A stretch of DNA of 64,000 nucleotides, taken from assembly GCF_001591045.1 (NCBI RefSeq), contig NZ_BCUA01000008.1:1-64000 (forward strand), read 5' to 3'. How positions within the stretch are numbered: position 1 is the stretch's first letter; each line of letters opens with the position of its first letter. The notes beneath the pieces were generated by a model. It ran no database searches and had not been told where the DNA came from. It saw nothing but the letters and a program-made list of their open reading frames with translations. Made by a program: the position numbers and the translations under genes. This DNA is from Sphingopyxis granuli NBRC 100800 (GTDB taxonomy: Bacteria > Pseudomonadota > Alphaproteobacteria > Sphingomonadales > Sphingomonadaceae). This document shows positions 4,619-27,100 of this stretch, piece by piece.

Positions 4619-4695
4619 CGGGACGTAGCGCAGCCTGGTAGCGCATCACACTGGGGGTGTGGGGGTCGGAGGTTCGAATCCTCTCGTCCCGACCA
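4619..4695 (+). tRNA. tRNA-Pro (anticodon GGG)
   Basis: A 77-nt cloverleaf can be folded by eye. The acceptor stem CGGGACG/CGTCCCG is followed by discriminator A and an encoded CCA. The D-arm is GCGC...GCGC. The anticodon stem TCACA/TGTGG carries the loop CTGGGGG with anticodon GGG, which reads CCC (proline). The T-arm is GGAGG-TTCGAAT-CCTCT. It sits between the sec operon and the catabolic block. No duplicate of its 3' end and no integrase gene was seen, so there is no evidence that it served as an integration site. Confidence 0.96.
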
Positions 4696-6145: not shown

Positions 6146-6247
6146 GTTGCAATGCACGACACATAATGTCAATAGCACCGACATTGAGAGTTATAGAAGG
6201 CTTTGGCGCCCGCGCGCGACACATGCCGGAAACGAGGGGGAGGCAAG

Positions 6248-7111: not shown

Positions 7112-7128
7112 TTCCCGAGGATGATATC

Positions 7129-8394
<1,266 letters not shown>

Positions 8395-8400
<6 letters not shown>

Positions 8401-9663: not shown

Positions 9664-9746
9664 TCTGGTGCCTTCGATGAATTGCGGTGGCGGCCGCCCT
9701 CCGGGCTGCGCCGGTCGCACACTAGCCGCCGATCCGCAAACGACAA

Positions 9747-9775
9747 GACCCCGCAAGCAACGCGCTTGCGGGGTC
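9747..9775 (-). terminator. Terminator after TonB receptor pseudogene
   Basis: A perfect 12-bp stem (GACCCCGCAAGC with GCTTGCGGGGTC) and 5-nt loop, followed on the minus strand by a weak T-rich stretch. It lies 28 bp after the receptor's stop. Confidence 0.65.
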
Positions 9776-9802: not shown

Positions 9803-12277
9803 TCAGAAGCGATAGCGGCCCGTGACGGTCCAATAACGGTCGGGACCGTAATAGCCGCTGAGGCGCTGGACCGTGCCGCCGACGTTCTGAATGATCGAAT
9901 TGTCCGAATAGATCTTGCGGAACAGGTTGCTGACCGTGCCCGTGATATCGAGACGCTCGTCCCTGGTACGATAGGTCAGCGTCAGCCCGACGACGGTGCG
10001 GCCGCCGACGCGGTTGCGGTTGAAGGCGTCGGTATAATAGCCGCTCTGATACGTGACCGAACCGCCCGGATAGAGATAGCCGGACGAACCGAGGTCGAAG
10101 CCATAATAGCCATAGAGCGACGCCTTGTTGCGCGGCGTGCGCGGCACTTCGTTGCCCGACAGGTCGCGGAAATAGAGCGGGTTGATCGTCTGGTTGTCCG
10201 GGTCGTCGCCCACCGTAGGCGGCTGCGTGATGTCGATGACGCCACAGCTGGTCGAACCGACGACGGGAGGACAGAAGCTCTTAAAGGTCGGATGAAGATA
10301 GGTATAGGTCGCGACGATGTTGGAATGGACGTTCGGCCGCCACGTCACCTGCATTTCGGCGCCGTAGATTTCCGCGAGCCTGGCGTTGGTGAAGGTGGAG
10401 AATACTGGCCCCAACGATGGCTCCGTGCGCGGCGGGACGGGCGGCAGGATGTTGGCCGAACTGATCGGAATCTGCATGTCGTGGAACTTCTGATAGAAGA
10501 TCGACCCATCGAACCGCAGCCCGCCCGCCGTATAGTTTCCGCCGATTTCATAGACGTCGAGATGCTGGGAATCGGAGATGTTATAGGGCGGAAGCCCCTG
10601 CCCCAGCGTGAAGGCGGACGACTGATAGCCGCGCGAATAGCTGAGATAGAGCTGGTCGCCCGACGACGGCCGCCACGCCAGCGCCGCCCGGCCCGACAGG
10701 CCGCGATCGCGCCGGAACGGGTTCGCCGAATGCACGGCGGGGCTGACGTCGCTCGCATAGAAAGGCGGGTAGTAATAAATATAGCGGAAGTCGGTCAGCG
10801 CTTCCTTTTCGTCCCACGTATGCCGCAGGCCGCCGTCGAAGCGGATCGTGTCGGTGATGTCGTAGGTGACGTTGCCGAACAGGGCGGTCGAACGGATGTC
10901 GTATATGTTGCGCTGCTCGAATTCGGCCTTGAGCGGGTTGCCGCCGGGGATGATTCCGCCGCCGCCGCCCTCGACCAGCACGTCGTCGGCGCCGGGAATC
11001 GCTTCCCAATAATGCTCGTTGAAATGCTGGTTGAAATAATAGGCGCCGAGAATTCAGCTCAGCCGCGATCCCGGCTTGCTTTCCAGCCGCGCTTCCTGCG
11101 ACCAGAAGTGGTTATCATTCTCGTAATTGCTCGTATATTGGGTCGGCACGATCGTGCCGGGGGCAAAGGGGTCGGTCGGCGCCGCCGCGTAGCTGGAGCG
11201 CGAGGTCAGGTCGCGATCCGCCGTTCCGGTCGAGACATAGGTCTGGTAGCCGCCGACATAATAGAGCGTCGCGAAGCCGAGATCGAGGTCGGCGTTGGTG
11301 ATCGTCTGGAAATTGTCCCGCAACCGGTCATAGCCGACGGTATCGACGTTGATCTGATAGGGCTCGGTCGCCGTCGGACCCGTATATCCATATTGCGGAT
11401 TGGGCGACAGGCCGCCGAACACGGGACCCGCGCTGTTATAGCTCGTCATCGTCGGATAACCCGGCTGATTGCTATAGCGGAAGGTCGTCGACCGGTTGCG
11501 GATATGAAACCCGCCGATCCGCCACTCGAGTTGCAGTTCGACATAGAGATTCTTGACCGCGAAGCCCGCGTCCTGCAGGCCCAGCGAACCCGGCGCCAGA
11601 TTCTTCATGATGCTTGGCGTGATGTAGCGCTGCGCCCCCAGACGGAAACCGAGGTTGTCGGTGATCGGCCCCGAAATGTTCATGCCGTAATTATAGGCGC
11701 CTTCGCGACCGATGCCGACCTGCGCCTGACCGACGAATTCAGGCGTCGGCGCGCGCGACTGGACGTTGATCGCCCCGGCGAGCGCGTTGCGCCCATAGGT
11801 GGTTCCGGCCGGACCGCGCGTGAACTGGACATTGCCGCCGAACAGCGTGCTTTCCGCGATATTCGAAGGCACCAGGTTGATGAAGCCGTCGACATATTGG
11901 ATGACGGTATTCTCTTGGCCGAGCAGAGTCTGCGCGGTCTGGCGGCCGACACCGCGCACGTTGATGCCGAAATCCTCGGTGAAATTGAATCCGGGCTGGA
12001 TGTCCAGCAACTGGCGGGCGGTCCCGACACCGGCGAGGTTGCGCTGTTCGGCGGTGATGACCGCCTTCGACTGCGACGATTCGAGAAGTTTCTGGAAGCG
12101 GCTGCCCGACACGACGATCGCGCGTTCCTCGACCACATCCTTCCTCTGCGCGGTCTCGGCATCCTCCGCCCGATCGCCCGCCTCCGGCGCCTCCTGCGCC
12201 ATTCCGGCGAGCGGCGACGCCGCCAGCATCATGGCAAAATATGCACCGCCTGCGCGCAAAAATCCTTTCGACCGCAT
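9803..12277 (-). pseudogene. TonB-dependent receptor, interrupted by in-frame TGA
   Basis: An outer-membrane TonB-dependent receptor of 824 codons. The start at 12277 follows GGGGAGGA. A signal peptide ending near GMAQEAPEAG, a plug domain (VVSGSRFQKLLESS...TARQLLDIQPGFNF) and a beta-barrel to the usual final YRF are all in one frame. Codon 408 (11054-11056) is TGA in the context GSRLS-stop-ILGAYYF, where the family normally has Trp (TGG). One base change therefore explains the break, and the rest is intact. It would yield a truncated, non-functional barrel unless the stop is read through or is a sequencing error. It is divergent from the SDR gene and carries a copy of the shared upstream motif. 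Confidence 0.85.
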
Positions 12278-12318
12278 AAATCCTCCCCTGTTGCCCATTC
12301 ATCGGGTGCCGATGATGA

Positions 12319-12642: not shown

Positions 12643-12697
12643 CAATATCCGGCATCGGGGATAGAGCATTGGCGTCGAGTTGCCGGGGAGAGGTCGA

Positions 12698-13603
12698 ATG
12701 CGCGAATTTGAAGGCAGAACCGCCGTGATCACCGGCGGGGCCAGCGGGATCGGTCTCGCCTTCGCTCACCTGTTCGGCCGGAACGGCTGCCGGATCATGC
12801 TCGCCGACATAGAATCGACCGCGCTCGACAGCGCGGTCGAGGGTCTGCGCAAGGCCGGCATCGCCGCTTTCGGCGAGATCGCCGACGTCGCCGACCCCGC
12901 GTCGGTCGAACGGCTCGCCGCGCGCACCTTCGACCGGTTCGGCAAGGTGCATCTGCTCTTCAACAACGCCGGCGTTTCGATTACAGGCCCGACCTGGCGG
13001 ATGAGTCCCGACGACTGGCGCTGGGTGTGGGACGTCAACGTCTGGGGCGTCGTCAATGGCATCCGGGCCTTCCTGCCCGCCATGATGGCCCATGGCGAGG
13101 AGGCGCATGTCATCAACACCGGCTCGCTCGCTTCCTTTTTCGGCAATGGCGATCATGCGCCCTATTGCTCGTCGAAGGCCGCGGTGCTCGGGATAAGCCA
13201 GTCGCTCTACAGCGAAATGAGGGCAATGAAGACGCGGGTCGGCGTCACGATCGTCTGTCCGGGCATGGTGGCGACGCGGATTCACCAGAGCTGGCGCAAC
13301 CGCCCCGACGCGGATCGGCCCTGGAGCGATCGCGAATATGCCGACCTCGCGTTCCGGGAAGGCAGCGAGGCCTTCCAGGGCGCCGGCCTCTCGCCCGACG
13401 TGATCGCCGAGGCGACACTGGACGCGGTTCGCAACGATCGCTTCTATTCCTTCTCTGGCGACCGCTGGCCTTTCTTCATACGCGGCGCGCTGGAGCCGAC
13501 GCTGCGCGGCGACAATCCCCCGGTCGCGACCTGGGGAGAAGACCGGCGGAGCGAGGAGGAGCGCGCGCCCGCCCCATGGGCGGCCGCGGCAAGCGGGGCA
13601 TAG
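12698..13603 (+). CDS. Short-chain dehydrogenase/reductase
   Basis: A 301-residue classical SDR with NAD(P) motif TGGASGIG at residues 13-20, NNAG, the catalytic Ser region NTGSLASFFG and the YxxxK pair in PYCSSKAA. The start at 12698 follows GGGGAGAGG. A C-terminal extension beyond the usual 250 residues ends in an Ala-rich tail. SDRs of this type interconvert secondary alcohols and ketones. The next gene, a PhyH dioxygenase, starts 4 bp after its stop, so the two are very likely cotranscribed. The substrate is unknown; a secondary alcohol from polymer or lipid breakdown would fit the context. Confidence 0.87.
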   Translation: MREFEGRTAVITGGASGIGLAFAHLFGRNGCRIMLADIESTALDSAVEGLRKAGIAAFGEIADVADPASVERLAARTFDRFGKVHLLFNNAGVSITGPTWRMSPDDWRWVWDVNVWGVVNGIRAFLPAMMAHGEEAHVINTGSLASFFGNGDHAPYCSSKAAVLGISQSLYSEMRAMKTRVGVTIVCPGMVATRIHQSWRNRPDADRPWSDREYADLAFREGSEAFQGAGLSPDVIAEATLDAVRNDRFYSFSGDRWPFFIRGALEPTLRGDNPPVATWGEDRRSEEERAPAPWAAAASGA

Positions 13604-13607
13604 GGCG

Positions 13608-14426
13608 ATGTTCCGCACCCCCGACGCGGCCGAGCTGGCCTGTCATGAGGAGCATCTCGCACGCGAAGGCTATGTCATCGTTCCCGAGCTTCTCGACGCC
13701 GCGGGATGCGGGACGGTGCTGGCGGCGATGCAGGCCCTCCACGCACCGGAGGCTTTTGGCGACAACGACTTCACGGGCTTTCGCACGAAGCGGGTGTTCA
13801 ATCTGTTCGCCCGGACGCGCGCGCTCGATCCGCTGCTCCTTAACCCCGCCCTGCTCCGTCTCGTCCGCGCGATACTGGGGCCCGAAGCCCAGCTTTCGAT
13901 CGCTTCGACGATGGAAATCCATCCCGACGAGACACCGCAGGCGCTGCACCGCGACGATGCCTATTTCCCCGTCAATCCGCATCCGCCGCTGGTCGTCAAT
14001 ACGATGTGGGCGCTCTCCGACTTCACCGAGGCGAACGGCGGAACGCGGATCGTCCCCGGATCGCACCGCAAGCCCGGCCCGGTCGACCCGGCCGCCGCGT
14101 CGATCGCGGTAGAGATGCCACGCGGATCGGTACTGCTGTGGGATGGCCAGCTGTGGCACGGCGGCGGCGCGAACCGCACAGGCGAACCGCGTTTCGGCGT
14201 CTCGCTGAATTTCTGCCGCGGCTGGATCCGGCAGCAGGAAAACCAGTATCTCAGCCTCGATCCGGCGCTCGTTCGCATGCTGCCCGACGAGGTGCAGAAA
14301 CTGCTCGGCTACGACATATGCCAGTTCGTCGGCTGGGTGGACGGCCGCCATCCAATGCGCGCCATCGTTCCCGAGGTCCGTGCGCGCATCCACGCCGGCC
14401 TCCATCGCGAGACGTCGGCGCGCTAA
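13608..14426 (+). CDS. Phytanoyl-CoA dioxygenase (PhyH) family protein
   Basis: A 272-residue Fe(II)/2-oxoglutarate oxygenase. The iron ligands His114 and Asp116 (LHRDDAYF) and His184 (LWHGGGANRTG) are present, and Arg195 (GEPRFGVSL) is the likely 2-oxoglutarate contact. PhyH proteins hydroxylate acyl-CoAs or small molecules next to a carbonyl, which lets branched chains be degraded. It is cotranscribed with the preceding SDR. The precise substrate cannot be inferred. Confidence 0.85.
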   Translation: MFRTPDAAELACHEEHLAREGYVIVPELLDAAGCGTVLAAMQALHAPEAFGDNDFTGFRTKRVFNLFARTRALDPLLLNPALLRLVRAILGPEAQLSIASTMEIHPDETPQALHRDDAYFPVNPHPPLVVNTMWALSDFTEANGGTRIVPGSHRKPGPVDPAAASIAVEMPRGSVLLWDGQLWHGGGANRTGEPRFGVSLNFCRGWIRQQENQYLSLDPALVRMLPDEVQKLLGYDICQFVGWVDGRHPMRAIVPEVRARIHAGLHRETSAR

Positions 14427-14667: not shown

Positions 14668-15474
14668 TCACCCGCCGAATTGCGTCTTTCCGGCGGCTGT
14701 CATCCCGGCGTCGATCACCAGATCGTGGCAGTTGACGAAAGCCCCCTCGTCGCTGGCGAGATAGAGCGCGCCATAGGCGATGTCGCGCGGCAGGCCCGCG
14801 CGGCGCAGCGGCGTCGCATTCGCCAGGTTGCGCTGAAGCTTGGCCATCGTCGCCTCGACCCGCTCGCCCTCCATTCCCGCCGCCCTTTCCGATCCGCCGA
14901 AGAAGATCGGCGTCGCGATGCCGCCGGGCGCGATGCTGTTGACCCGCACGCCGAAGGGCGCCAGCTCGATGCCCGCGACCTTCGTCAGGTGCCGGACGGC
15001 CGCCTTCGCGGGGCCATAGAGATATTCGCCGTAATCGGTTCGGAGCGCCGCGACGCTGGCATTGTTGATGATCGCGCCCGATTTCTGCGCCTTCATCACC
15101 GGCGCGGCATGTTTGATGCCGAACAGGACGCTGCCCAGCAGCAGGTTCATCGCATGATGGAATTCGTCGCCCGTTACCGTTTCCATCGCGCCGGGGGTGG
15201 GACCGCCGGCATTGTTGAACAGGCAATCGAGGCGACCGTGGGCGGAAAGCGCGGAATCGATCGCCGCCTTGATGTCGGCCTCCCTGGTGACGTCGCCCTG
15301 GACGAAGCGGGCTGAGGGCCCGACCCGCGCCGCGATCTCCTGTCCCTTGTCGGCATTGCGGCCCGTGAATACGACCCTCGCGCCCTCCTGGACGAACAAT
15401 TCGACCGTCGCCTCGCCGATCCCGCTGGTGCCGCCGGTGATCACCGCCACCTTGCCTTCAAGGCGCTGCCCCAT
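14668..15474 (-). CDS. Short-chain dehydrogenase/reductase, last gene of pva-like operon
   Basis: A 268-residue classical SDR with TGGTSGIG at residues 14-21, NNAGG, a Ser in INNASVAAL and YxxxK in YLYGPAKAAV. It starts 12 bp after the acyl-CoA ligase stop on the same strand, so it is the distal gene of the operon that begins with the oph-like hydrolase. It may oxidise or reduce hydroxy/keto groups on activated fragments. The three-gene pva operon described in Sphingopyxis sp. 113P3 does not include this gene as I recall it. Confidence 0.86.
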   Translation of the reverse strand: MGQRLEGKVAVITGGTSGIGEATVELFVQEGARVVFTGRNADKGQEIAARVGPSARFVQGDVTREADIKAAIDSALSAHGRLDCLFNNAGGPTPGAMETVTGDEFHHAMNLLLGSVLFGIKHAAPVMKAQKSGAIINNASVAALRTDYGEYLYGPAKAAVRHLTKVAGIELAPFGVRVNSIAPGGIATPIFFGGSERAAGMEGERVEATMAKLQRNLANATPLRRAGLPRDIAYGALYLASDEGAFVNCHDLVIDAGMTAAGKTQFGG

Positions 15475-15486
15475 GATTCGTCTCCC

Positions 15487-17061
15487 TCAATAAGTCGCGG
15501 ATTCGTCCGCCAGGCGGTCCTGAAGCTCGCGCTTCAATATCTTGCCGATCGCGCTGCGCGGCAGTTCGTCGACGATGCGCACATCGGCCAGCCGCTGCAT
15601 CTTGCCCAGCCGCGCATTGGCGAAATCGCGCAATTCGCCGCCGCCGACCGTCGCGCCCGCGGCCAGCGTGACGAAGCCGACGGGCGTCTCGCCCCACTGG
15701 CGCGATGCGGCGCCGATCACGGCCGCTTCGTCCACGGCGGGATGCTCGCGCAATATCTCTTCGAGATCGACCGGATAAATGTTGAACCCGCCCGACACGA
15801 TCATGTCCTTCCGGCGCCCGATCAGCGTGAAGAAGCCTTCCGCGTCGACCATCGCCAGGTCGCCGGTGCGGATGAAGCGCTCGCCCTCGGGGCTGATCCA
15901 TTCGGCCTCGGCGGTCTTCGCGGGTTGATTGTAATAGCCGGTCATCATCGCGCCCGATCGGCCCACGACCTCGCCGACCTCGCCTGCGCCGAGGAGCCGG
16001 CCCTGCCCGTCGATCAGGCGGATGTCGTGTCCGGGCATCGGCTGGCCGACGGTGGCCAGCTTGTCGGGATGCTCGTGCGCTACGAGCATGCAGGACCCGC
16101 CGCCCTCGGTCATGCCATAATATTCGATCAGCCCTCCCGGCCAGCGCTTCAGCACCTCGGCCTTCAATTCGGCGGAGAAAGGTGCCGATGTCGCGAATTT
16201 GAGCTGGAAGCTCGACAGGTCGAACTTGTCGAAATCGGGAACGTCGAGGATGCGGCGATATTGGACGGGGACGAGCATCGTATGGGTGACGCGATGGCGC
16301 TCGGCCAGTTCCAGATAGCGCCTGGCGTCGAATTTGGGCATCAGCACGACCGTGCCGCCGCCCGCCAGCGCCGGAATGAAATGGACGAGGGTCGTGTTCG
16401 AATAGAGCGGGGTCGAGACGAGCGCCACCGCGTCCGGCCCGAATCCCGGCGGGTCGGCCGGATTGTTGTGAGGCCAGCGCATGCGGTGCGACTGCACGAT
16501 CCCCTTCGGCGTGCCCGTCGTCCCGGAGGAATAGATGATGTTGAAGGGCAGGTCGGGATCGATCTCGACCGATTGCAACGCCGATGCGTCTTCGGGTAGC
16601 CAGGCCGCGATCGCCTCGCCCTTCGCCCCCTCCTCCAAAGCGATGCGCCGGGCTCGCAGGCCGGGCTCCACGGGCGCCAGCGTCGCCGACACGGCGGCAT
16701 CGGCGAACAGGTGGCTCGCGCCGCAATCGTCGAGCATCGCCGCAAGCTGGGCCGGCGTCGCCGAGGGGGCGAGCGGCGAAATCGCCGCGCCGGCGCGCAG
16801 GGTTCCGATGAACACCGCGGCATAATCGATGCTGCTGCTCGCGCAGATCGCCACCACCCCGCCGCGGCGCACGCCGTCGCGTTGCAGGCCGGCCGCCACG
16901 CAATCGGCAAGCCCGTCGAGTTCGGCATAGGTCGCCCGCGCATCGTCACAGACGATCGCGACATGCTCCGGGCGCTCCGCCGCCTGCAACGCCACGAAGT
17001 CCGCAAAAGTCCCGAAATCCCGCCCAATATATTCCGCCATCGCGGCGCTAGCCCCGCTCAT
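15487..17061 (-). CDS. AMP-forming acyl-CoA synthetase (class I ligase)
   Basis: A 524-residue ANL-superfamily ligase that adenylates a carboxylate and transfers it to CoA. The P-loop is IIYSSGTTGTPKGIV, the A5 region is EYYGMTEGGG, and the hinge and catalytic Lys are in the final motif RSAIGKILKREL. The start at 17061 (MSGASAAMAEYIG) overlaps the cytochrome c stop as ATGA, which implies translational coupling. Reading further upstream runs through the cytochrome c gene in another frame. In this operon it could activate carboxylates released by the upstream hydrolase. Confidence 0.9.
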   Translation of the reverse strand: MSGASAAMAEYIGRDFGTFADFVALQAAERPEHVAIVCDDARATYAELDGLADCVAAGLQRDGVRRGGVVAICASSSIDYAAVFIGTLRAGAAISPLAPSATPAQLAAMLDDCGASHLFADAAVSATLAPVEPGLRARRIALEEGAKGEAIAAWLPEDASALQSVEIDPDLPFNIIYSSGTTGTPKGIVQSHRMRWPHNNPADPPGFGPDAVALVSTPLYSNTTLVHFIPALAGGGTVVLMPKFDARRYLELAERHRVTHTMLVPVQYRRILDVPDFDKFDLSSFQLKFATSAPFSAELKAEVLKRWPGGLIEYYGMTEGGGSCMLVAHEHPDKLATVGQPMPGHDIRLIDGQGRLLGAGEVGEVVGRSGAMMTGYYNQPAKTAEAEWISPEGERFIRTGDLAMVDAEGFFTLIGRRKDMIVSGGFNIYPVDLEEILREHPAVDEAAVIGAASRQWGETPVGFVTLAAGATVGGGELRDFANARLGKMQRLADVRIVDELPRSAIGKILKRELQDRLADESATY

Positions 17062-17468
17062 TTGAGCTTTTCCAGATATTGGGCGATCGCCATGCGATCG
17101 GCGGCGGAGGCGACGGATGGATTGATCATCTTCGTCCCCGGCACCGTTTTCGCCGGATCGGCGATGTAGGCAATCATCTCTGCACGGGTCCAGACGCGGC
17201 CACTCTTCTGGAGCGCCGGCGAATAGGCATAGCCCGGACGCGTGCCCGCCTTCTTGCCCGCGACGCCGAACAGATTGGGCCCGACGCCGTGCGCCGCACC
17301 CGACGTCGTGGCATGGCATGCCACGCAACGGGCAAAGGCGGGCGGCGCGGCGGGCTTCGCCTTGGGTGCCGCCTGTCCCGGCACCGAAGCGATCCACAGC
17401 ATGGCAGCGCCCCCTGCTGCCAACGAAAGCGTGCGGATAAGGAAAGTCGCCATCATATATCGTTCCAT
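17058..17468 (-). CDS. Periplasmic cytochrome c (cytC-like)
   Basis: A 136-residue class I cytochrome c with an N-terminal signal segment (LSLAAGGAAMLWIASVPGQA), one heme site CVACH at residues 48-52 and a distal Met in PGTKMINPS. In the described pva operon a small cytochrome c accepts electrons from PVA dehydrogenase, and here the gene lies 70 bp after the dehydrogenase. A later in-frame ATG (17456 or 17453) has a better-placed GGAA and may be the true start. Its stop overlaps the ligase start. Confidence 0.9.
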   Translation of the reverse strand: MERYMMATFLIRTLSLAAGGAAMLWIASVPGQAAPKAKPAAPPAFARCVACHATTSGAAHGVGPNLFGVAGKKAGTRPGYAYSPALQKSGRVWTRAEMIAYIADPAKTVPGTKMINPSVASAADRMAIAQYLEKLK

Positions 17469-17538
17469 TATTCAGAAATGCAGCATGTCAAAGCTGGCAT
17501 CGGTCGGATGAACCGCGCCGAAACCGCTCGCCGTCCCG

Positions 17539-19524
17539 TCATTTGCCGTCTACGGAAAAGGCCATCAGGACATTGCCATCGGCGTTGCGCATGCTGGCAC
17601 CGCCGGTTGCCCCCGAACGACCCGCATAGCCGGAATGGACATAAACCATTCCGCCCGCGACCGTCGGCCCCCCGCCGTCCATGACGCCGCCATAGGCGGT
17701 TCGCCCGCTCAGCGTCATGATCGGTTCGCTGCCGGTGTCGACGTCCCAGACGATCTTGCCCGTTCCCGCGTCATAAGCGCGGAAATGACCGTCATAGGCG
17801 CCCGCGAAGACGATGCCGGGGATGACCGTGATCGCCTGCGACATCGCGCCGTGGCACCAGAAGCTGGTCCAGCGGCATTTCGGCGTCGGCGAATTGGGGC
17901 TGTTCCAGATGACCGCGCCGGTCGCGGGGTCGAGCGCCCACAGCCCGGGCTTGCCCTTCGGTCCGAGAACGATGTCGGAAATCGCAGCATAGACGCGCTC
18001 CTTGTCGGCGGCGAGACCGAATTCGACACCGCCAAGCGCGCTGCCCTCGCTCAACTGCCGTTCCCAGACGATACGACCGTCGAGCGGGCTGATGCCGAAG
18101 ACCTTGCCCGATTTCTGACCGACAAGCAGGATGTCGGTCCCGTCCGGCAGCGCATGCAGGATCACCGCGGCGCCGATCGAGAAGTCGGGTCCCAGCGGAT
18201 CGGGGCAATTCGCCGGCCGGTCCGGTCCGGTCCGCCAGCAGCCGTCGATATAATTGTCGTTGGGCGTAAGCTGGCGCGCCCAGCGGATCTCGCCGCTGTC
18301 CACGTCGATGGCCAACACCGAATCCGCATTGTCATAGGGCATGTCGGTATAGCTGTTCGACGTGCCGACATAGACGGCGCGGCGCTCGGGATCGATCGTC
18401 GGCGCGACCCAGATGGCGCCGCCCGACGGCCCCCACATTTCTTTGCCCGCGCTGTTGATCTTGAACGGCCGGGGTTCGGCCTCGGTGGTATAGCGTTTCC
18501 ACAGGATACGGCCCGTCACTGCATCGAGCGCGACGAGGGCGCCGCGGAACTTGCAGCAGACCCAGTCGGGCGATTGCGCGAACGCTTCGTTGCCCGACGA
18601 TATAGGCACGAAGATCTTGCCCTCCCAATAGACGAGCGAACCCGTCATCTGCAGGCCGGGCTGGTCGTCGATGACGGTTTTCCAGAGCTGCTTGCCGGTG
18701 TCGGCATCGATCGCGACCGCGCTCTTGGTCCAATCCGAATAGAAGAGCGCCGTGCGCGCCTGCGACCCTATCGGCATTTCTGCGGCGACGACGCTGGTTC
18801 GGGTCGCCGCTCCGGCGGCGTGGCGCCAATACACGCAGCCCGTCTTGGCATCGAGCGCATAGACGGCGCCCGACATGCTGGTGGTGAACAGCCTGTCGCC
18901 GATCACCGTCGCCTGTCCGTTCTTCGCGCCCGGATATTGGAACGCCCATTTCAGCTTCAGCTTCGGAACATCGGCTGCCGCGAGCCCCGGCTTCGGCTGA
19001 TAGTGCGCATTGTCGAGCGTGACGCTCCAGCCGTTCCACTGATGCTCGGCCGCCAGGTCAAGGGGGCGCGGCGGCGTGGCGCATTGCGGCGCGTCGAGCG
19101 GTGTTCCCTCGACGCCGTCGCCCCAGATCGCCTTGGGATCGACATCGGCCAAGGGGCCTGTGTCGACCTCGCTGACATGCCGCGCGATCGCGATCATCTC
19201 AGCGTCGGAAAGTCCCGCCGCCATCGGTACCATTGCGCCCGACTTCATCGAAGCCAGGATGAAGCTCGGCGGGTTCTTCGACAGCACTTCGCGCGTCGGC
19301 GTGCGATCGGTGGCATTGTCGTGGCAACTCGCGCAGCGGCTCTGATAAAGGGCGGCGCCGTCGGGCGTCGTCGCATGCGCGGGTGGCGGGCCGGCCTCTT
19401 CGGAGGGCGTCGCCGCGGCGTGAGCACAGGCGGCCGCCAGCAACGTGGCGGCAGCCCCAAGCAGCCATTTGTATTCGCGACGCGTTTCGCCGCGAGCGGC
19501 ATCGTTCGCAACCCGATACGCCAT
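17539..19524 (-). CDS. PQQ-dependent polyvinyl-alcohol-dehydrogenase-like quinohemoprotein
   Basis: A 661-residue exported enzyme. After a signal sequence with a lipobox-like Cys33, a cytochrome c domain holds CASCH at residues 64-68. From about residue 130 an eight-bladed quinoprotein propeller follows, with repeats such as GAVYALDAKTGCVYW. A vicinal Cys323-Cys324 pair (DWVCCKFRG) is typical of PQQ dehydrogenases. The architecture (N-terminal heme c plus PQQ propeller) matches PVA dehydrogenase, which oxidises secondary alcohols of PVA to beta-diketone and beta-hydroxyketone units. Its ATG overlaps the hydrolase stop as TGATG. Another secondary alcohol substrate remains possible. Confidence 0.85.
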   Translation of the reverse strand: MAYRVANDAARGETRREYKWLLGAAATLLAAACAHAAATPSEEAGPPPAHATTPDGAALYQSRCASCHDNATDRTPTREVLSKNPPSFILASMKSGAMVPMAAGLSDAEMIAIARHVSEVDTGPLADVDPKAIWGDGVEGTPLDAPQCATPPRPLDLAAEHQWNGWSVTLDNAHYQPKPGLAAADVPKLKLKWAFQYPGAKNGQATVIGDRLFTTSMSGAVYALDAKTGCVYWRHAAGAATRTSVVAAEMPIGSQARTALFYSDWTKSAVAIDADTGKQLWKTVIDDQPGLQMTGSLVYWEGKIFVPISSGNEAFAQSPDWVCCKFRGALVALDAVTGRILWKRYTTEAEPRPFKINSAGKEMWGPSGGAIWVAPTIDPERRAVYVGTSNSYTDMPYDNADSVLAIDVDSGEIRWARQLTPNDNYIDGCWRTGPDRPANCPDPLGPDFSIGAAVILHALPDGTDILLVGQKSGKVFGISPLDGRIVWERQLSEGSALGGVEFGLAADKERVYAAISDIVLGPKGKPGLWALDPATGAVIWNSPNSPTPKCRWTSFWCHGAMSQAITVIPGIVFAGAYDGHFRAYDAGTGKIVWDVDTGSEPIMTLSGRTAYGGVMDGGGPTVAGGMVYVHSGYAGRSGATGGASMRNADGNVLMAFSVDGK

Positions 19525-20618
19525 CAATAATGATCCTCGAAACGGCCGATTTTGCAGGCATAGCCGTCCGGCGGCGGGGTCAGCCTGAAGCTCTCGGGAC
19601 TGCTGCCCTTCGGGTGTGAAGCGAGCGTCCGCAACGCCCACAGGTTGAACGCATCGGTGCCGATCTGCGGCCACATATGGCCGTGCGTCGAACTGCACGC
19701 GACATGCACCACGTTCGGCTGGCTGCTGAAATAGTTCGAGGCGGCCTGCGTGCTGGGACGGTAATCTGCGCAAAGGCCGATCGCTCCCCCGCAATCCCAG
19801 AGATCCTTCTCACCACCCCAGACGGTAATGACGATTTCCGGCCCCAGTCTCGCAGGCAGCGGATGCGGACCGACCCGGCCCTGAAAGACCTTTTTCGGAT
19901 CGGCCGCAACCGCTGCGCGGGCGTCGTTGAACGACAGGGAAGAGCCGTCGTCGTTCCCGACATACCATTCGCCCGAAATCGGCATCCCGCCCGCCCAGAA
20001 GTGCGAATCGAACAGCAGCGCGCGATTGGTCATCGTGCCGCCGGCCGAAATGCCGCCGATGTAATAGCGCTTTCGGTCCAGTTTCCATCGGGTCGCGACG
20101 CAGCCGACCATCGCCTTGAAGAAGCGGGCGTCGGGTCCGGCGTCCTGCCGCCATTTGTCGCCTTCCGGACCCGCGGCCCGTCCGTCGTTCCAGGGATTCC
20201 AGTTCCAGCCGTTGCTGCCCGGACCGTTGCAGGCCCCCGCTGCCAGGTCGGGGTCCTGTTCGGCGCATTGACGGACCGGCGCAATGACCATGAAACCCGC
20301 CTCGGCCAGCTTCGCGTTGTTGCCGCTCCGCAGGACATGGAGGTTCCAGTTGGCCGATTCCACCGTGCCCGACATCGGCACCCACACCGGCGCCGGCCTG
20401 TCCGTGTCGCCGACCGGCGGCACGACAATGAAGGCCCGCTTCTGGCCCTCGAACTCGAAATCCTTGTTCAGCCCCGCTTGCGGTTCGAATCCTTCGGGGC
20501 ACGCCGGCCGGTCATGCGCGGCCGCGGAGACCGGAGCGATCAGAAGGGTCAGGGCCAGCGCGGCGCCCGAACCGGATCGGCGCATCGCGCGACTCGCAGG
20601 AATCAAGACATTTCCCAT
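19524..20618 (-). CDS. Oxidized-PVA-hydrolase-like serine hydrolase
   Basis: A 364-residue secreted alpha/beta hydrolase. The start at 20618 has GGGAGTGG upstream, and a signal peptide ends near VSAAA-H. The nucleophile is Ser191 in GGISAGG. Asp272 in WGGEKDLWDCGG and His312 or His314 in STHGHMWP are the likely remaining triad members, with Trp274 two residues after the Asp. PHB-depolymerase/LpqC-like esterases share the fold, but the gene order hydrolase-PVADH-cytochrome c is that of the pva operon, where OPH cleaves the C-C bond of beta-diketones in oxidised PVA. First gene of a five-gene operon; a motif copy lies 28 bp upstream. Confidence 0.78.
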   Translation of the reverse strand: MGNVLIPASRAMRRSGSGAALALTLLIAPVSAAAHDRPACPEGFEPQAGLNKDFEFEGQKRAFIVVPPVGDTDRPAPVWVPMSGTVESANWNLHVLRSGNNAKLAEAGFMVIAPVRQCAEQDPDLAAGACNGPGSNGWNWNPWNDGRAAGPEGDKWRQDAGPDARFFKAMVGCVATRWKLDRKRYYIGGISAGGTMTNRALLFDSHFWAGGMPISGEWYVGNDDGSSLSFNDARAAVAADPKKVFQGRVGPHPLPARLGPEIVITVWGGEKDLWDCGGAIGLCADYRPSTQAASNYFSSQPNVVHVACSSTHGHMWPQIGTDAFNLWALRTLASHPKGSSPESFRLTPPPDGYACKIGRFEDHY

Positions 20619-20835: not shown

Positions 20836-22332
20836 ATGAACGGCGGGAAAGGAGGCGCCGACCTCCGCAGCGGGAGCGCACGCGCGATGACTTCAGCCAC
20901 AATGCATTCGCCCGCGGACTCGCAACGGCGGCTCGTGCTCTGGCTCCTCGTTGCCGCCTATACGCTCAATTTCGTCGATCGCACGATCGTCGCGGCCATC
21001 GGCCAGGCGATCAAGGACGACCTCAAGATCACCGATACCCAGCTCGGGCTTCTCGGCGGGCTCTATTTCGCGCTCCTCTATACGATCTTGGGGATTCCGC
21101 TGGCCCGGCTGGCCGAGCGCGCGTCGCGGGTCAAGATCATCTCGGCGGCGATCTTCATCTGGTCGGGCTTCACGGCGCTTTGCGGCATGGCCTCCAGCTA
21201 TGCCATGCTCGCGGCCTGCCGCTTCGGCGTCGGCGTCGGGGAGGCGGGGCTTTCGCCGCCCGCGCATTCGCTGATCAGCGATTATTATGAGCCCGAGAAG
21301 CGCGCGTCGGCCTTGTCCATCTATTCGCTGGGCGTTCCGATCGGCGTGATGATCGGCGCCGTCGGCGGCGGATGGCTGGCGCAGAATTATTCGTGGCGGG
21401 TGGCCTTCATCGTGCTCGGGCTGCCCGGCGTGCTGCTGGCCCTCGTCATCAAGTTCCTCGTGCGCGAACCCGTGCGCGGGGCAATGGAAGCCGAACCGTC
21501 CGGCCCGCTCAAGCCCTATGTGCTGCGCGAGGATGTTCTCGAAACGGGTCGCGTGGCCCGCGCGATGTTCAGAAACTGGACACTCTTCAACATGATGATG
21601 GGGATCACGCTGATCAGCTTCGCCGGCTATGGCGGCGGCGCCTTCGTGCAGCCCTATTGGAGCCGGACGTTCGGGCTCGACTATGCGCAGGTCGGATTGA
21701 TCACCGGCCTGATCGGCGGAGCCAGCCAGGGCGCGGGGGTCCTGCTGGGCGGGCTCGTCAGTGACCGGCTCGCGCGGCGCGGCGCGACCATATGGTATGG
21801 GTTGGTGCCCGCAATCGGCATCGCGCTGTCCTATCCGCTGATCGTGGCGATCTACACCGCCGACAGTTGGCAGGCGGCGGCGGCGTGGATGCTGTTCCCC
21901 GGCGCCCTATCCTATACCTATATGGGTCCGACCTACGGCGTGGTGCAGAACGCCTTTCCGCCGGAACGGCGCGCGACCGCGACGGCAGTGCTCTTCTTCG
22001 TGCTCAACCTGATCGCGCTCGGCTTCGGCCCCCCGCTGACCGGGTGGCTCATCGACCATCTGGGCGCCTTCCATCACGCCTATCCCGCAGTCGAGGGCAT
22101 CGTGCCGGCGCTCGTTCATCTATTCTCGATCGATGCGGGGGCGTTCCAGGCGGCATGTCCAGGCGGCGCTGGGCCGATAGCGGGAAGCGCCGCCGACCGT
22201 GCCTGCCGGGCTGCGGTCGAACTGGCCACCCGTCAGGGGGTGCTGATCGCTTATGCAGTCGGCCTGTGGGCGGCATTGCATTATCTGCTTGCCGCCCTCG
22301 GCCTCCGCCGCGGGATGCCACGCACAGATTGA
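20836..22332 (+). CDS. MFS transporter (spinster-like)
   Basis: A 498-residue major facilitator with about 12 membrane segments. The first begins LVLWLLVAAYTLNFVDRTIV, a pattern common to MFS carriers near aromatic and fatty acid catabolic genes. The loop 2-3 region (ARLAERASRVKI) and an extended C-terminal loop with several Cys residues are visible. A second in-frame ATG at 20887 could be the start. It is divergent from the oph-like operon and shares its motif-bearing upstream region, so uptake of a breakdown product is a reasonable guess. Substrate and direction are not known. Confidence 0.85.
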   Translation: MNGGKGGADLRSGSARAMTSATMHSPADSQRRLVLWLLVAAYTLNFVDRTIVAAIGQAIKDDLKITDTQLGLLGGLYFALLYTILGIPLARLAERASRVKIISAAIFIWSGFTALCGMASSYAMLAACRFGVGVGEAGLSPPAHSLISDYYEPEKRASALSIYSLGVPIGVMIGAVGGGWLAQNYSWRVAFIVLGLPGVLLALVIKFLVREPVRGAMEAEPSGPLKPYVLREDVLETGRVARAMFRNWTLFNMMMGITLISFAGYGGGAFVQPYWSRTFGLDYAQVGLITGLIGGASQGAGVLLGGLVSDRLARRGATIWYGLVPAIGIALSYPLIVAIYTADSWQAAAAWMLFPGALSYTYMGPTYGVVQNAFPPERRATATAVLFFVLNLIALGFGPPLTGWLIDHLGAFHHAYPAVEGIVPALVHLFSIDAGAFQAACPGGAGPIAGSAADRACRAAVELATRQGVLIAYAVGLWAALHYLLAALGLRRGMPRTD

Positions 22333-22556: not shown

Positions 22557-24065
22557 TCATGGGTCGCTGGCGATTTCAGACTCATCGGCCTGCTGCATTG
22601 CGATCTTGCGGAGATTTGCCTCATGGACCTCGCGATTGATGGGAAAGGCGATGATGGCGAGCAAGCCGCATATCTGCAGCGCCATGATCACCGCCGGCTC
22701 GGTCAGCGCCAGCATGGTCAGGACGTCGGCCGGCACCTCGCCTTGCTTCGCGCTTTCGGGAAAAGCGACGAAGGAGAGGATCAGCCCGGCGCCGAACACG
22801 CCGACCCCCGACATCGCCTTCAGGAGAAACGCGTTGGCCGAAAAGATCAGCCCGGCGGAATCGCGGCCCGTGCGCACTGCGGCATATTCGACCACGTCGG
22901 CGAACATCGACGAGCCCATCGTGCCCGCGCTGACCGCGATCGTCGTATTGATGAAACCCATCACGAACAGCGCGACATAGAGCATCTGGGTGCCGTTCTC
23001 CGGCGCGATGCCGAGCAGGCGGCTGAAATACATGATCGGGCTGCAGATGATCGCGGCGATCGACAGCATGATCGCCGCGCGCTTCTTGCCGAGCTTCGCC
23101 CCCAGCCACGGCGCGAAGAAGAGCGCCGTGACCAGCGCCGCGAAATAGCCTATCATCAGGCCTGAAATCTGGTCGCCGGTCAGTTCCCAGAAATAGATGC
23201 GGAAATAGGTCAGCGTCGCGGCAACGACACCCGCCGACGCCGAGGCGAAGAAGGTCCCCACCGCCAGCAGCAGGAACGGCTTGTTGACCAGCGTATCCCA
23301 TACTTCGCGCGCGCTCTGCGCCAGCACGAACGGACGCCGCGGCGGCGGCGGCGCGAAGCTCGGGATGTGCCGCGCGGTGCCGAGCGAGGAGATGACGATC
23401 GCGGCGAGCATGATGAGCGAGGCGACGAGACCGTAATCGGCATAGCCCTGCACGTTCAGCTGGCCGCCGGGATCGTCCGGGCCGGGGCGCAGGAAATAGC
23501 TGAAGGCGAGGATGTTGCTCCCCAGCCCGCCGACATAGCCGAAGAACCATCGCCAACTCATGAAGGCGGTGCGCTTGTCATAGTCGCGGACCAGATCGAC
23601 GACGAGCGCGCTCGACGGGATTTCGTAGACCGAAATGAAGACGCGGATCAGGATCGCGAGCCATGTCAGATACCAGAACAGGCCATCGGGCCCGAGTCCC
23701 TCCGGCGGGTTCCACAGAAAATAATAGCTGATCGCGATCGGCAGGGCCGCGCCCAGCATGAAGGGGTGCCGCCGCCCCCAGCGCGAGCGGACGCCGTCGC
23801 TCATCCGCCCGATGAACGGATCGGCCACCGCATCGACAACCAATGCAATCATGATCGCGAACCCGACGGTCGCGGCCGGCAGGCCGAGCGCCTGATTGTA
23901 GAAGATCATCAGCAATACGGTGAAGCCGGTGTCCTTGACCCCGAACGCAATCGATCCGATCCCATAGAAGATGCGGTCGACGACCGTCTTCTCCTTCGGT
24001 GCGGCGGGCATCGGTCCGGTGCCCTCCAAAGGCGCGGTTTCGCTCTCCATAGAGACGGTCGCCAT
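22557..24065 (-). CDS. MFS transporter of the GPH/MelB (MFS_2) type
   Basis: A 502-residue carrier resembling glycoside-pentoside-hexuronide:cation symporters. The first segment region is FYGIGSIAFGVKDTGFTVLL. The conserved loop ADPFIGRMSDGVRSRWGRRHPF identifies the family. The start at 24065 (MATVSMESE) follows AGGAGG at six bases; two earlier in-frame ATGs lie on or before that site. It probably imports a solute with a cation. A motif copy lies 36 bp upstream, linking it to the same putative regulon. Confidence 0.86.
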   Translation of the reverse strand: MATVSMESETAPLEGTGPMPAAPKEKTVVDRIFYGIGSIAFGVKDTGFTVLLMIFYNQALGLPAATVGFAIMIALVVDAVADPFIGRMSDGVRSRWGRRHPFMLGAALPIAISYYFLWNPPEGLGPDGLFWYLTWLAILIRVFISVYEIPSSALVVDLVRDYDKRTAFMSWRWFFGYVGGLGSNILAFSYFLRPGPDDPGGQLNVQGYADYGLVASLIMLAAIVISSLGTARHIPSFAPPPPRRPFVLAQSAREVWDTLVNKPFLLLAVGTFFASASAGVVAATLTYFRIYFWELTGDQISGLMIGYFAALVTALFFAPWLGAKLGKKRAAIMLSIAAIICSPIMYFSRLLGIAPENGTQMLYVALFVMGFINTTIAVSAGTMGSSMFADVVEYAAVRTGRDSAGLIFSANAFLLKAMSGVGVFGAGLILSFVAFPESAKQGEVPADVLTMLALTEPAVIMALQICGLLAIIAFPINREVHEANLRKIAMQQADESEIASDP

Positions 24066-24101
24066 ATGCATCCTCCTGCGGCGCCTCTCGTGAAGCGCTC
24101 C

Positions 24102-24115
24102 CATACTTATTTTCT
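24102..24115 (-). promoter_or_regulatory. Shared motif site 7 (AGAA-N7-ATG)
   Basis: On the minus strand AGAA-AATAAGT-ATG preceded by ATTTA, 36 bp upstream of the GPH-type transporter and pointing to it. It differs from site 1 at very few positions. Confidence 0.5.
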
Positions 24116-24157: not shown

Positions 24158-27100
24158 TTACCAGCTATCGATCCAGCGCAATCGCTTGCCGCTCTCCGGC
24201 ACGGTTGCGGCCGGCGCCGTCCTCAGCGCGGCCGCGATCCATTGCCTTGTGTCCGCCGGGTCGATCACATCGTCGATGCCATAATAGCCCGCCGTCGTGA
24301 GCGCCTTGCCGTGCTGATAGAGCTGCGCGACCATTTCCTCGAATTTCGCTTGGCGTGTCACAGGGTCCGCGATCGCATCCAGTTCCTTGCGATACCCCAG
24401 TCGCACCGCTCCCTCGAGGCCCATGCCGCCGAATTCGCCCGTCGGCCACGACACCGCGAACATCGACGCCTGATAACTGCCACCAGTCATCGCGATCGCC
24501 CCCAATCCATAGCTTTTGCGGAGCACGACCGACAGCAGGGGCACCGTCAGATTGGCGCCGATCAGGAACATCCGCGCCGCGTGCCGGACCAAACCCGTCT
24601 TCTCAACCTCTGGACCGACCATGATGCCGGGCGTGTCGCTCAGCGATACCACCGGCAGGCCGTGCGCCTCGCAAAGCTGAAGAAAGCGGGCGGCTTTGTC
24701 GGCGGCGTCGCTGTCGATCGCGCCCCCCAGGTGAGCGGGGTCGTTCGCGACGATGCCCACGGGCCTTCCTTCGATCCGCGCCAGTCCGACGATCATGGAA
24801 AGCCCGAAGCCGCGGCGCAATTCCATCCAGCTTTCCCGGTCGACGAGCGTCTCGATCAGAGCACGGATGTCATAGACGCGCAGCCGGTTCTCGGGAATCG
24901 CATGTCGCAGCGCGCGCTGATCTGCGCACGTCCAATCCGCCAGCCTCCCTTGAAAATAGCCAAGATAGCGCTTGGCGGCCGCGACCGCGGCCACCTCGTC
25001 GTCGACCAGGAGATCGACGACGCCGTTCGCGACATGGACCGCGACCGGCCCGACCTCTTCCGGCCGGAACACGCCGAGACCGCCGCCTTCGATCATCGCC
25101 GGACCGCCCATGCCGATCGTGGCATCGCGGGTGGCGATGACGACGTCGCTGCAGCCGAGGAAGGAGGCGTTGCCGGCAAAGCAGCGCCCCGCCGCCATGC
25201 CGACGATCGGCACCCGCCCGCTGAGCTTGGGCAGCCATTCGAAAGCGCGGATGAAGCCGCCGCCATCGGTATCGCCTGGCCGGCCGCCCCCACCCTCCGC
25301 GAACTGAACGAAGGGGATGCGCCAGCGGTCCGCGAGTTCGACCAGCCGGTCGGTCTTGATATGATTGCGCGCGCCCTGCGTGCCGGCGAAGACGGTATAG
25401 TCATAGGCCATCGTCGCGACCCGCGCATGCTCCTCGCCGAACAGGCCCGCGTTGACGGTGCCGATCCCCATCACCAACCCGTCCGCAGGGCTCTGTGCGA
25501 TCAGTTCCTCGGTGGTCGCGCGACGGCTCCGTCCGGCGATGGCGAGACCGCCATACTCGATGAAACTGTCGTCATCGAGCAGGGCGTCGATATTCTCGCG
25601 CGCCGTTCGGTGCCCCGTCTTGCGGCGCTTGGCCACCGCATCGGGGCGCGCGATGTCGAGCGTGCCGCGGCGCCGCGCCAACACCTCCGCCAGATCGGCC
25701 CGGATATGATCGGGATCGACGGCCGCCGCCTTGGCCGGGACAGCCTCGGCCGCATCCCCGGCTTCGGGTTCGATGAACAGGATCGGCTGTCCTTCGGCGA
25801 GCGTGTCGCCGACCGCCGCGACGAAAGAGACCACGATGCCGGCCGCTGGCGCGGCGACGCCGTGCTGCATTTTCATCGCCTCAACCACCGCGATTTCCTG
25901 GCCGGGGACGACGCTGTCGCCCGGCTTCACGGTGACGGCGACCAGCGCGCCGAGCATCGGCGCCGCTATCGCCACCATGCCTTCGGGTATTTCGGCGAGT
26001 GCGGTTACGGCGGGAATAGCTTCGCGGCCTTCTTCTCCGTCCGAAACCGGCAACGCGGCCTCGGCGGCGAGCAGCGCCGTCAGCCGCTCGTCGACGAGCT
26101 GCACATGGGCGCGTCCCGCCAGCACCTCGGGATCGGCGAGCAATGCTCGCAGGAACCCGATATTCGTCGGCACGCCGACAATCCCGAAGCGATCGAGGGC
26201 GCGGCGCGCCTTGGCCGCCGCAGCCGGAAAGCCGCCGTAGGGAACACTGACGATCAGTTTGGCGAGCAGGGAATCATAGCGCAGGCTGGTGCGATATCCC
26301 TCGCGTCCGAACGTATCGACGCGAACGCCACGCCCCCCCGGCTGCGCGAAGCGCACGATCGTTCCCGCGGCCGGACGCGCCCCATCGGCCGTCATCGTCT
26401 CCATGTTCACCCGCACCTGGAGCGCGCATCCGCGCGGCGCCGGCACGCTTGCCTGTTCGAGACCGAGGTCCGCGAGCGTCGCGCCATCGGAAATCGCGAG
26501 TTGCAGCCGGACGAGATCGAGGCCCGTAACCTCTTCGGTCACCGTATGCTCGACCTGAAGGCGGGGATTGACCTCGATGAACGCCCAGTCGTCGCCATCG
26601 GACGCAACGAGGAACTCGACGGTGGCGAGGCTGCGCAAGCGCGCTTCCGACGCCATGCGCACCGCCGCGTCGAGCAGCGCCGAACGCGTCGCGGGTGGCA
26701 GGGCGTCGGCGGGCGCCCATTCGACGATCTTCTGCCGCGCGCGCTGGAGCGAGCATTCGCGGTCCCACAAGTGAGCGACCGCACCGCTCCCGTCGCCCAC
26801 CACCTGCACTTCGATATGGCGCGCATGCGGAAGCAGCCGCTCGATATAAAGCGCGCCGCTGCCGAAACTGCTCTCGGCCTCGGCCGCGCAGCGTGCGAAG
26901 GCGGCGTCGAGGTCCTCCCGCCGTTCGACCGGCCGCATGCCCCGGCCGCCACCGCCTGCGATCGCCTTCAACATCACCGCCGCGCCGTTGCCGAGCCGGT
27001 CGAAGAAGGCTCGCGCTTCCTCGATCGTCACCGGTTCATCGGTCCCTTCGGGCAGCGCGGCGCCGCACAGGCGGGCATAGGCCCGCGAGCGCGCCTTGTC

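What the first reader, a model, noticed from the sequence alone, without database searches (positions are those of the whole stretch)
14668..20618. Five-gene extended pva-like operon: hydrolase, quinohemoprotein dehydrogenase, cytochrome c, acyl-CoA ligase, SDR
The order hydrolase-PVADH-cytochrome c on one strand matches the oph-pvaA-cytC operon known for PVA breakdown in Sphingopyxis sp. 113P3. Here the genes are tightly linked (TGATG overlap, 70 bp gap, ATGA overlap, 12 bp gap), and two further genes, an acyl-CoA ligase and an SDR, are coupled on. That links extracellular polymer cleavage directly to CoA activation, which I do not recall as part of the described operon. The polymer or substrate may differ from PVA.
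Basis: partly seen in the sequence, partly recalled or inferred. Interest (0 to 1): 0.85.

Follow-up and report, generated by a model that had tools for sequence, protein, structure and literature searches.

The report
Second PVA-degradation gene cluster, with CoA steps
This Sphingopyxis-type bacterium carries a second, old and divergent copy of the gene cluster for eating the water-soluble plastic polyvinyl alcohol, and the cluster (like the one in the best-studied degrader) continues past the three published genes into enzymes that could turn the cut pieces into acetyl-CoA, a part of the route I did not find described.

Summary
In detail: five same-strand genes at 14668-20618, with exactly the stated spacings. 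The hydrolase is by sequence an OPH and the dehydrogenase a PVADH. One correction: this is no extension peculiar to the window. The chromosomal locus of Sphingopyxis sp. 113P3, whose OPH is the crystallised one (3wla), also continues into the acyl-CoA ligase and SDR, as does its plasmid copy; the genome announcement lists three genes. The window's genome holds a near-identical copy of that locus (contig C21) besides the window copy, which is 67-74% identical for OPH, PVADH, ligase and SDR. In both, the operon lies in a larger island with a thiolase and a 3-hydroxyacyl-CoA dehydrogenase resembling FadB without its hydratase half. In Povalibacter and a Steroidobacter MAG, OPH-PVADH loci instead carry acetoacetate-CoA ligase, a 3-hydroxyacyl-CoA dehydrogenase and a related SDR. 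I propose: PVADH and OPH cut the polyol in the periplasm; the ligase activates the acid ends; SDR/HAD and thiolase release acetyl-CoA. The chemistry fits a 1,3-polyol. Substrate and all CoA-step activities are inferred; the divergence of the two copies implies a natural substrate before synthetic PVA.

The parts
19524..20618 (-). OPH, predicted periplasmic beta-diketone hydrolase; GISAGG (Ser191), GGEKD (Asp272), GHMWPQ (His314)
17539..19524 (-). PVADH: PQQ beta-propeller dehydrogenase with N-terminal haem c site CASCH and a vicinal Cys pair
17058..17468 (-). c-type cytochrome, presumed electron acceptor of PVADH
15487..17061 (-). AMP-forming acyl-CoA ligase, pva-associated clade, no signal-peptide-like start
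14668..15474 (-). SDR dehydrogenase (TGGTSGIG, Ser-Tyr-Lys), proposed 3-hydroxyacyl-CoA or hydroxy-acid dehydrogenase
7129..8400 (+). 3-hydroxyacyl-CoA dehydrogenase resembling the C-terminal part of FadB; no hydratase half (open frame from 7108)
6248..7111 (+). alpha/beta hydrolase (open frame from 6203)
4904..6106 (-). acetyl-CoA C-acyltransferase (thiolase); open frame to 6184
8395..9756 (-). TetR-type regulator reading frame with two TetR-like regions; homologue beside the C21 copy
9803..12298 (-). TonB-dependent receptor, interrupted by one in-frame stop; uninterrupted in C21 and 113P3
12680..13603 (+). second SDR (SDR2)
13608..14426 (+). PhyH-family (phytanoyl-CoA dioxygenase) protein, role unknown
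20836..22332 (+). MFS transporter, divergent from the operon
22557..24104 (-). GPH/MFS_2 family symporter
24158..27436 (-). fused biotin-dependent acyl-CoA carboxylase; 78% identical on C21

Best explanation
The five genes are the core of a second, paralogous pva catabolic island. Receptor and transporters bring in a 1,3-polyol polymer. In the periplasm PVADH oxidises neighbouring secondary alcohols (electrons to cytochrome c), and OPH hydrolyses the resulting beta-diketone into an acid end and a methyl-ketone end. In the cytosol the ligase makes the acid a CoA thioester. Because every second carbon of the chain bears OH, this is already a 3-hydroxyacyl-CoA, so no acyl-CoA dehydrogenase or hydratase is needed: SDR and/or HAD give the 3-ketoacyl-CoA and thiolase releases acetyl-CoA plus a new 3-hydroxyacyl-CoA. 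HOOC-(CH2-CHOH)n-CH2-CO-CH3 would yield n+2 acetyl-CoA. Shown by sequence: gene families, linkage, conservation, missing hydratase half. Inferred: substrate, compartments, each activity of ligase, SDR, HAD and thiolase, and a division of labour between SDR and HAD for the two hydroxyl configurations.
For: OPH to 3wla E 8.5e-173; PVADH 75% to the 113P3 plasmid copy, 68% to the C21 copy. Ligase and SDR follow OPH-PVADH in 6 of 6 Sphingomonadales loci with enough sequence (window, L003, L006, L030, L011, L013); two further PVADH loci, L007 and L008, end too soon to tell. cytC lies between PVADH and ligase in 4 of those 6. 7 pva-associated ligases (6 beside OPH-PVADH, 1 about 60 kb away on the 113P3 plasmid) form one clade, 100/99, apart from the genus paralogues given to the tree. 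In Povalibacter and a Steroidobacter MAG the OPH-PVADH loci carry acetoacetate-CoA ligase above the curated cut-off (790.8 and 785.9 against 520.9 bits), a 3-hydroxyacyl-CoA dehydrogenase match and a 55-57% SDR. HAD aligns to the best FadB model only at 313-714 of 717; residues 290-706 of the own core FadB match it, and the hydratase half finds nothing better than E 5 in the window. The 15 island genes of the window gave no acyl-CoA dehydrogenase or crotonase family match. Purifying selection. The C21 island moved as a block of at least 34 kb. [quoted passage not shown]
Against: No activity is shown. The C21 and 113P3 chromosomal islands do hold a separate enoyl-CoA hydratase (L006 18360-19181), so hydratase-free is borne out for the window only. 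No HAD or thiolase match in the held flanks of L011 and L013, no thiolase match in those of L018 and L019, and no HAD on the 113P3 plasmid in the genus scan. 11 of 21 OPH loci have no adjoining PVADH at 48% identity or more. PhyH, SDR2, alpha/beta hydrolase and carboxylase have no place in the scheme. The window's TonB receptor is interrupted, so this copy may not work alone. PQQ synthesis could not be judged.
Confidence: 0.68

Rival explanations
1. The island serves a natural 1,3-polyol or poly-beta-hydroxy/keto compound, and PVA is at most a side substrate. The same enzymology applies to a natural chain.
For: The two copies in one genome differ at synonymous sites by dS about 0.9-1.6, far too much for the roughly one century since PVA was first made (date recalled). 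OPH relatives occur in lichen, lake and glacier-strain records, to judge by record names. A related ligase-SDR pair sits beside a full-length PQQ alcohol dehydrogenase, without OPH, in genome G045. An acyl-CoA carboxylase, which PVA would not need, lies near OPH on both own islands and in L013, L014 and L015.
Against: The substrates that I know for this OPH/PVADH group are PVA-related (recalled), and the near-identical C21 island is that of a PVA isolate.
Confidence: 0.4
2. Ligase and SDR do not act on polymer fragments but on a co-occurring small acid or alcohol, or on lipid turnover; linkage reflects joint regulation or transfer only.
For: Ligase homologues at E <= 1e-60 exist in 80 of 80 genus genomes and SDR homologues at E <= 1e-45 in 74 of 80, so the families as such are not polymer-specific.
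Against: The pva-associated ligases form their own clade and keep the position in three lineages; a non-orthologous ligase occupies the same niche in Povalibacter and the Steroidobacter MAG.
Confidence: 0.18
3. The window copy is decaying or silent, the C21 copy being the working one.
For: The receptor gene has an in-frame stop and the operon is inverted relative to its flanks.
Against: The other 14 listed frames are open, dN/dS is low in the eight genes measured (0.12-0.33) and the motifs checked in seven genes are intact. One stop could be a sequencing error.
Confidence: 0.15

Closest known systems
pva operon of Sphingopyxis sp. 113P3 (OPH, PVADH, cytochrome c; PMC4611681)
   Same: Same gene order and families. 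C21 of this genome matches the 113P3 chromosomal island at 99-100% in nearly all 500-base steps over about 34.5 kb.
   Different: Window copy is 67-74% identical for OPH, PVADH, ligase and SDR, with cytochrome c near 48%, and is inverted relative to its flanks. The announcement has three genes; the sequence shows that ligase and SDR follow in 113P3 too.
113P3 plasmid NZ_CP009453.1 pva-like locus
   Same: OPH-PVADH-cytC-ligase-SDR and PhyH at 69-75% (cytC 56%) by tblastn.
   Different: An extra MFS gene splits PVADH from cytC; thiolase, alpha/beta hydrolase, TetR, SDR2 and another ligase lie about 60 kb away.
pvaA-pvaB operon of Pseudomonas sp. VM15C
   Same: PVADH and OPH genes form an operon, by the title of a reference seen; its OPH structures (3wl6 and others) are the next best PDB matches (strain name recalled).
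   Different: Surroundings of that operon not seen here.
peg genes of sphingomonads (pegE acyl-CoA ligase for PEG-carboxylate; PMC3066834 passage)
   Same: A polymer-degradation gene set that includes a CoA ligase for the polymer acid: the precedent for the concept.
   Different: Different dehydrogenase type (FAD, same passage) and no OPH (recalled); PegE was not compared by sequence here.
FadB / fatty-acid beta-oxidation complex
   Same: The island HAD resembles the FadB dehydrogenase part, 53% to the own core FadB, and sits near a thiolase.
   Different: Hydratase half missing in the three pva-linked copies; the other listed matches in 80 genus genomes lie in frames of 609 aa or more, but for one 304-aa contig-end fragment.

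Membership tests
OPH (oxidized PVA hydrolase) | sequence homology to a characterised OPH over the whole mature chain | tested here: met
   residues 37-364 to 3wla, E 8.5e-173
OPH (oxidized PVA hydrolase) | Ser-Asp-His active site (assignment recalled) | tested here: met
   GISAGG, GGEKD, GHMWPQ conserved at S191, D272, H314
OPH (oxidized PVA hydrolase) | hydrolysis of oxidized PVA or beta-diketones | not testable with these tools
   needs an assay
PVADH | PQQ beta-propeller with haem c domain, close to 113P3 PVADH | tested here: met
   68-75% identity to 113P3-type copies, CASCH near the N-terminus. By identity; no PVADH tree built
PVADH | oxidation of PVA with cytochrome c as acceptor | not testable with these tools
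   needs an assay
pva operon | oph-pvaA-cytC order on one strand | tested here: met
pva operon | co-transcription and expression with PVA | not testable with these tools
   no transcript data
FadB multifunctional enzyme | fused enoyl-CoA hydratase and 3-hydroxyacyl-CoA dehydrogenase | tested here: not met
   only the dehydrogenase part is present
peg operon acyl-CoA ligase PegE | homology to PegE | not tested
   no PegE sequence was in hand

The most novel reading that the evidence does not exclude
The island encodes a dedicated beta-oxidation for 1,3-polyols without the desaturation and hydration steps: a pva-specific CoA ligase, a FadB-like dehydrogenase stripped of its hydratase, an SDR for the other hydroxyl configuration, and thiolase, all acting on a chain that already has oxygen on every second carbon. 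It is much older than synthetic PVA and evolved on a natural polyol; Gammaproteobacterial degraders reached the same end with acetoacetate-CoA ligase.
Probability: 0.35. Interest if true: 0.8.

Novelty: new variant of a known kind. Interest (0 to 1): 0.6.

Why it matters
The pathway in the texts I could read stops at OPH products (vinyl alcohol oligomers, then a secondary alcohol dehydrogenase; PMC9602593 passage). If the ligase-SDR-HAD-thiolase set is the next stage, the whole route from a carbon-backbone plastic to acetyl-CoA becomes testable with a handful of named genes, which also matters for upcycling PVA. The depth of divergence poses a clear question: what did these enzymes eat before PVA existed? 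The novelty grade rests on the undescribed CoA part; as an OPH-PVADH-cytC locus the window copy alone would be a new member of a known kind.

Tried and rejected
Rejected: (a) that ligase and SDR are new to this window, since both 113P3 loci have them. (b) Two minus-strand frames at 6191-6883 and 7048-8250 that I first took as genes; the plus-strand frames are real (alpha/beta hydrolase and HAD). (c) Insertion at the neighbouring tRNA-Pro 4619-4695: no repeat of its end longer than 14-19 bases on the contig. (d) A strict claim that no hydratase exists in pva islands: C21 and 113P3 have one. (e) My early note that OPH loci without PVADH have no CoA genes: L012, L014 and L015 do have ligase matches.

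Led nowhere: PQQ synthesis gene pqqC, 0 of 2 genomes, but the control was silent too, so no conclusion; promoter and terminator scan no better than shuffles; OPH in a class sample 1 of 385 and a phylum sample 1 of 398, the own genome only. No structure prediction was run, because sequence relations were already clear.
Full report
OBSERVATION. In the window, OPH, PVADH and cytochrome c begin with hydrophobic, signal-like stretches (highest 15-residue mean 2.1, 1.9, 1.6); ligase and SDR do not (0.7, 0.9). The measure is crude: the HAD, expected in the cytosol, scores 1.5. I infer that the operon spans periplasm and cytosol.

IDENTITY. At E <= 0.001 the hydrolase matches four distinct PDB sequences, all named oxidized polyvinyl alcohol hydrolase. 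The PVADH is 75% identical to the copy on the 113P3 plasmid and 68% to a second copy in the window's own genome. The motifs that I looked for were present in the five genes and in HAD and thiolase; what they mean is recalled. A simple pattern for PhyH metal ligands did not match, and I draw nothing from it.

SECOND COPY AND 113P3. The own genome has OPH twice, on C8 (window) and C21. Its chromosomal OPH is identical to 3wla from residue 35 to 364 on the printed alignment, in line with the announcement that the pva operon lies on the chromosome in the finished genome (whole text). That locus reads thiolase, alpha/beta hydrolase, HAD, TonB, SDR2, PhyH, OPH, PVADH, cytC, ligase, SDR. C21 aligns to it over 41,480 bases at 98.6%, with 99-100% in nearly all 500-base steps from the contig start to about 34.5 kb (lowest there 96-98%) and 90-99% beyond. 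Two core genes differ more: FadB 88.8% and the ligase paralogue 83.9% at DNA level. I infer a recent exchange of the whole island; only two core genes were compared.

THE WINDOW COPY is older: dS 0.9-1.6 against C21 for the eight genes measured, dN/dS 0.12-0.25 for OPH, PVADH, ligase, SDR, HAD, thiolase and PhyH, 0.33 for cytC (simple Nei-Gojobori counts, near saturation). Its five-gene block is inverted relative to flanks that run the same way on C21: the block behaves as a unit.

NEIGHBOURHOODS. I looked at 21 OPH loci: 17 from the genome collection plus window, L003, L006 and L030. They are not 21 genomes: L018/L021 and L019/L022 are pairs from one contig each, and window/L006 and L030/L003 are pairs from one genome each; L034 repeats L013 and was not counted. 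10 have an adjoining PVADH at 48% identity or more and 11 do not (two of the 11, L021 and L022, have a 24% PQQ-propeller match instead). Of the 10, two end right after PVADH (L007, L008). Of the other 8, 6 (all Sphingomonadales) have ligase and SDR downstream; cytC is between in 4 of 6. The remaining 2 (Povalibacter L019, Steroidobacter MAG L018) lack this ligase but have acetoacetate-CoA ligase, a 3-hydroxyacyl-CoA dehydrogenase match (Pfam-confirmed in L019, the only one scanned) and an SDR 55-57% identical to the window's, all within about 8 kb. Thiolase and HAD of the island type lie beside the operon in window, L006 and L030 only. Among the loci without PVADH, L012 has two ligase matches at 26% and 31% on either side of OPH, one of them above the cut-off of a general acyl-CoA synthetase model (771 against 701 bits), and L014 and L015 have ligase and SDR matches of 30-32% about 8 kb away.

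OPH is rare, the own genome being counted each time: strong hits in 2 of 80 genus genomes (own and 113P3, two copies each; three others only weak), 2 of 396 in an order sample, 1 of 385 in a class sample, 1 of 398 in a phylum sample. PVADH at 68% or more: 2 of 80, with two more at 40-41% at E <= 1e-60.

HOW SPECIFIC ARE THE CoA GENES. Identity to the window protein, among listed matches in 80 genus genomes (some lists were cut): ligase, other pva-associated copies 69%, the rest 56% or less apart from a 59% contig-end fragment; SDR 74% against 56% or less; thiolase 77-84% against 68% or less; HAD 76% against 57% or less. In the ligase tree the clade of 7 has 100/99, its inner order is partly unresolved, and some outgroup branches are long. 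The three pva-linked HADs sit in open frames of 451-508 aa; the other listed matches lie in frames of 609 aa or more, as for full FadB, apart from one 304-aa contig-end fragment. Four FadB frames that I fetched, from four genomes with own and 113P3 among them, are 676-727 aa.

MECHANISM. [quoted passage not shown] An acid with OH at carbon 3 is one ligation away from a 3-hydroxyacyl-CoA, and each thiolysis returns another one. This explains why ligase, dehydrogenases and thiolase suffice and why the dehydrogenase could do without a hydratase half. FadB-type dehydrogenases use the S isomer (recalled); an atactic chain would need a second dehydrogenase, for which the SDR is the candidate. This stereochemical part is inference. 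Against a strict reading, the C21 and 113P3 islands carry a free enoyl-CoA hydratase, which the window lacks; it could serve as epimerase or act on other fragments. Acetoacetate, the smallest fragment (n=0), would make the acetoacetate-CoA ligase in Povalibacter intelligible. That Povalibacter is a PVA degrader is recalled, not from a call.

LITERATURE. Searches listed titles and abstract starts of at most 40 papers each; among these I saw none that links OPH/PVADH to a CoA ligase or hydroxyacyl-CoA dehydrogenase. Most subscription papers are not in the library. Whole texts: PMC4611681, PMC12243470. Passages: PMC7250832 (TFA has pva-like genes in conserved organisation, no growth on PVA, no PQQ genes), PMC9602593, PMC4675939, PMC3066834 (pegE), PMC9169050 (an actinobacterium; Fenton-type attack on PVA, lipid-metabolism genes up on PVA, no pva operon in the passages), PMC3184429. 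The supplementary pathway figure of PMC7250832 was not available, so a proposed downstream route may exist there. PMC5734030 (Stenotrophomonas PVA enzymes) is not held. The 2008 operon paper and the 2009 review were seen only as references.

VERDICT. A real, functional-looking second pva island. The operon as announced is too short; the CoA module is well supported by linkage but untested.

Noticed in passing
L022 8018-10993; also L018 2781-5624: In Povalibacter and a Steroidobacter MAG, single uninterrupted frames (991 and 947 aa) hold, in frame, a PQQ-propeller region (24% to PVADH) and an OPH region (56% and 43%); the Povalibacter one also has CBM96. They look like natural dehydrogenase-hydrolase fusions.
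   Followed up: partly
window 24158-27436; L031 4798-8070; L013 1-2596; L014, L015: A fused biotin-dependent acyl-CoA carboxylase is 78% identical on both own islands, 54% (partial) some 7 kb from OPH in Polymorphobacter L013, and lies directly beside OPH (52-53%) in two Alphaproteobacterial loci without PVADH. Role unknown.
   Followed up: partly
L051 (genome G045): A ligase (50%) and SDR (56%) related to the pva pair sit with a full-length PQQ alcohol dehydrogenase, a GPH transporter and TonB receptor, without OPH.
   Followed up: partly
window 9803-12298: TonB-dependent receptor gene interrupted by one in-frame stop codon; the relatives on C21 and in 113P3 are uninterrupted.
   Followed up: partly
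own C21 27-34500 and G024:C1 from 176656: At least 34 kb nearly identical between two species whose two sampled core genes differ by 11-16%: recent exchange of the pva island.
   Followed up: yes
L035 (113P3 plasmid 74000-93900): A satellite set on the same plasmid with thiolase, alpha/beta hydrolase, TetR, SDR2, GPH and a further pva-clade ligase.
   Followed up: partly
L009, L010, L012, L014-L017, L020, L023: OPH homologues at 63-70% identity with no PVADH match in the held flanks, in other Alphaproteobacteria. Scanned neighbours: in L016 M28 peptidase and DUF2252; in L015 acyl-CoA carboxylase, esterase and peptide-type ABC transporter; L012, L014, L015 also have ligase matches. Their substrate is an open question.
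   Followed up: partly
L006 18360-19184 (C21) and 113P3 chromosome: A free enoyl-CoA hydratase gene between MFS and GPH on the C21 and 113P3 islands, absent from the window.
   Followed up: partly
window 8395-9756: One frame with two TetR-like regions; in 113P3 the homologue is split over two frames.
   Followed up: no
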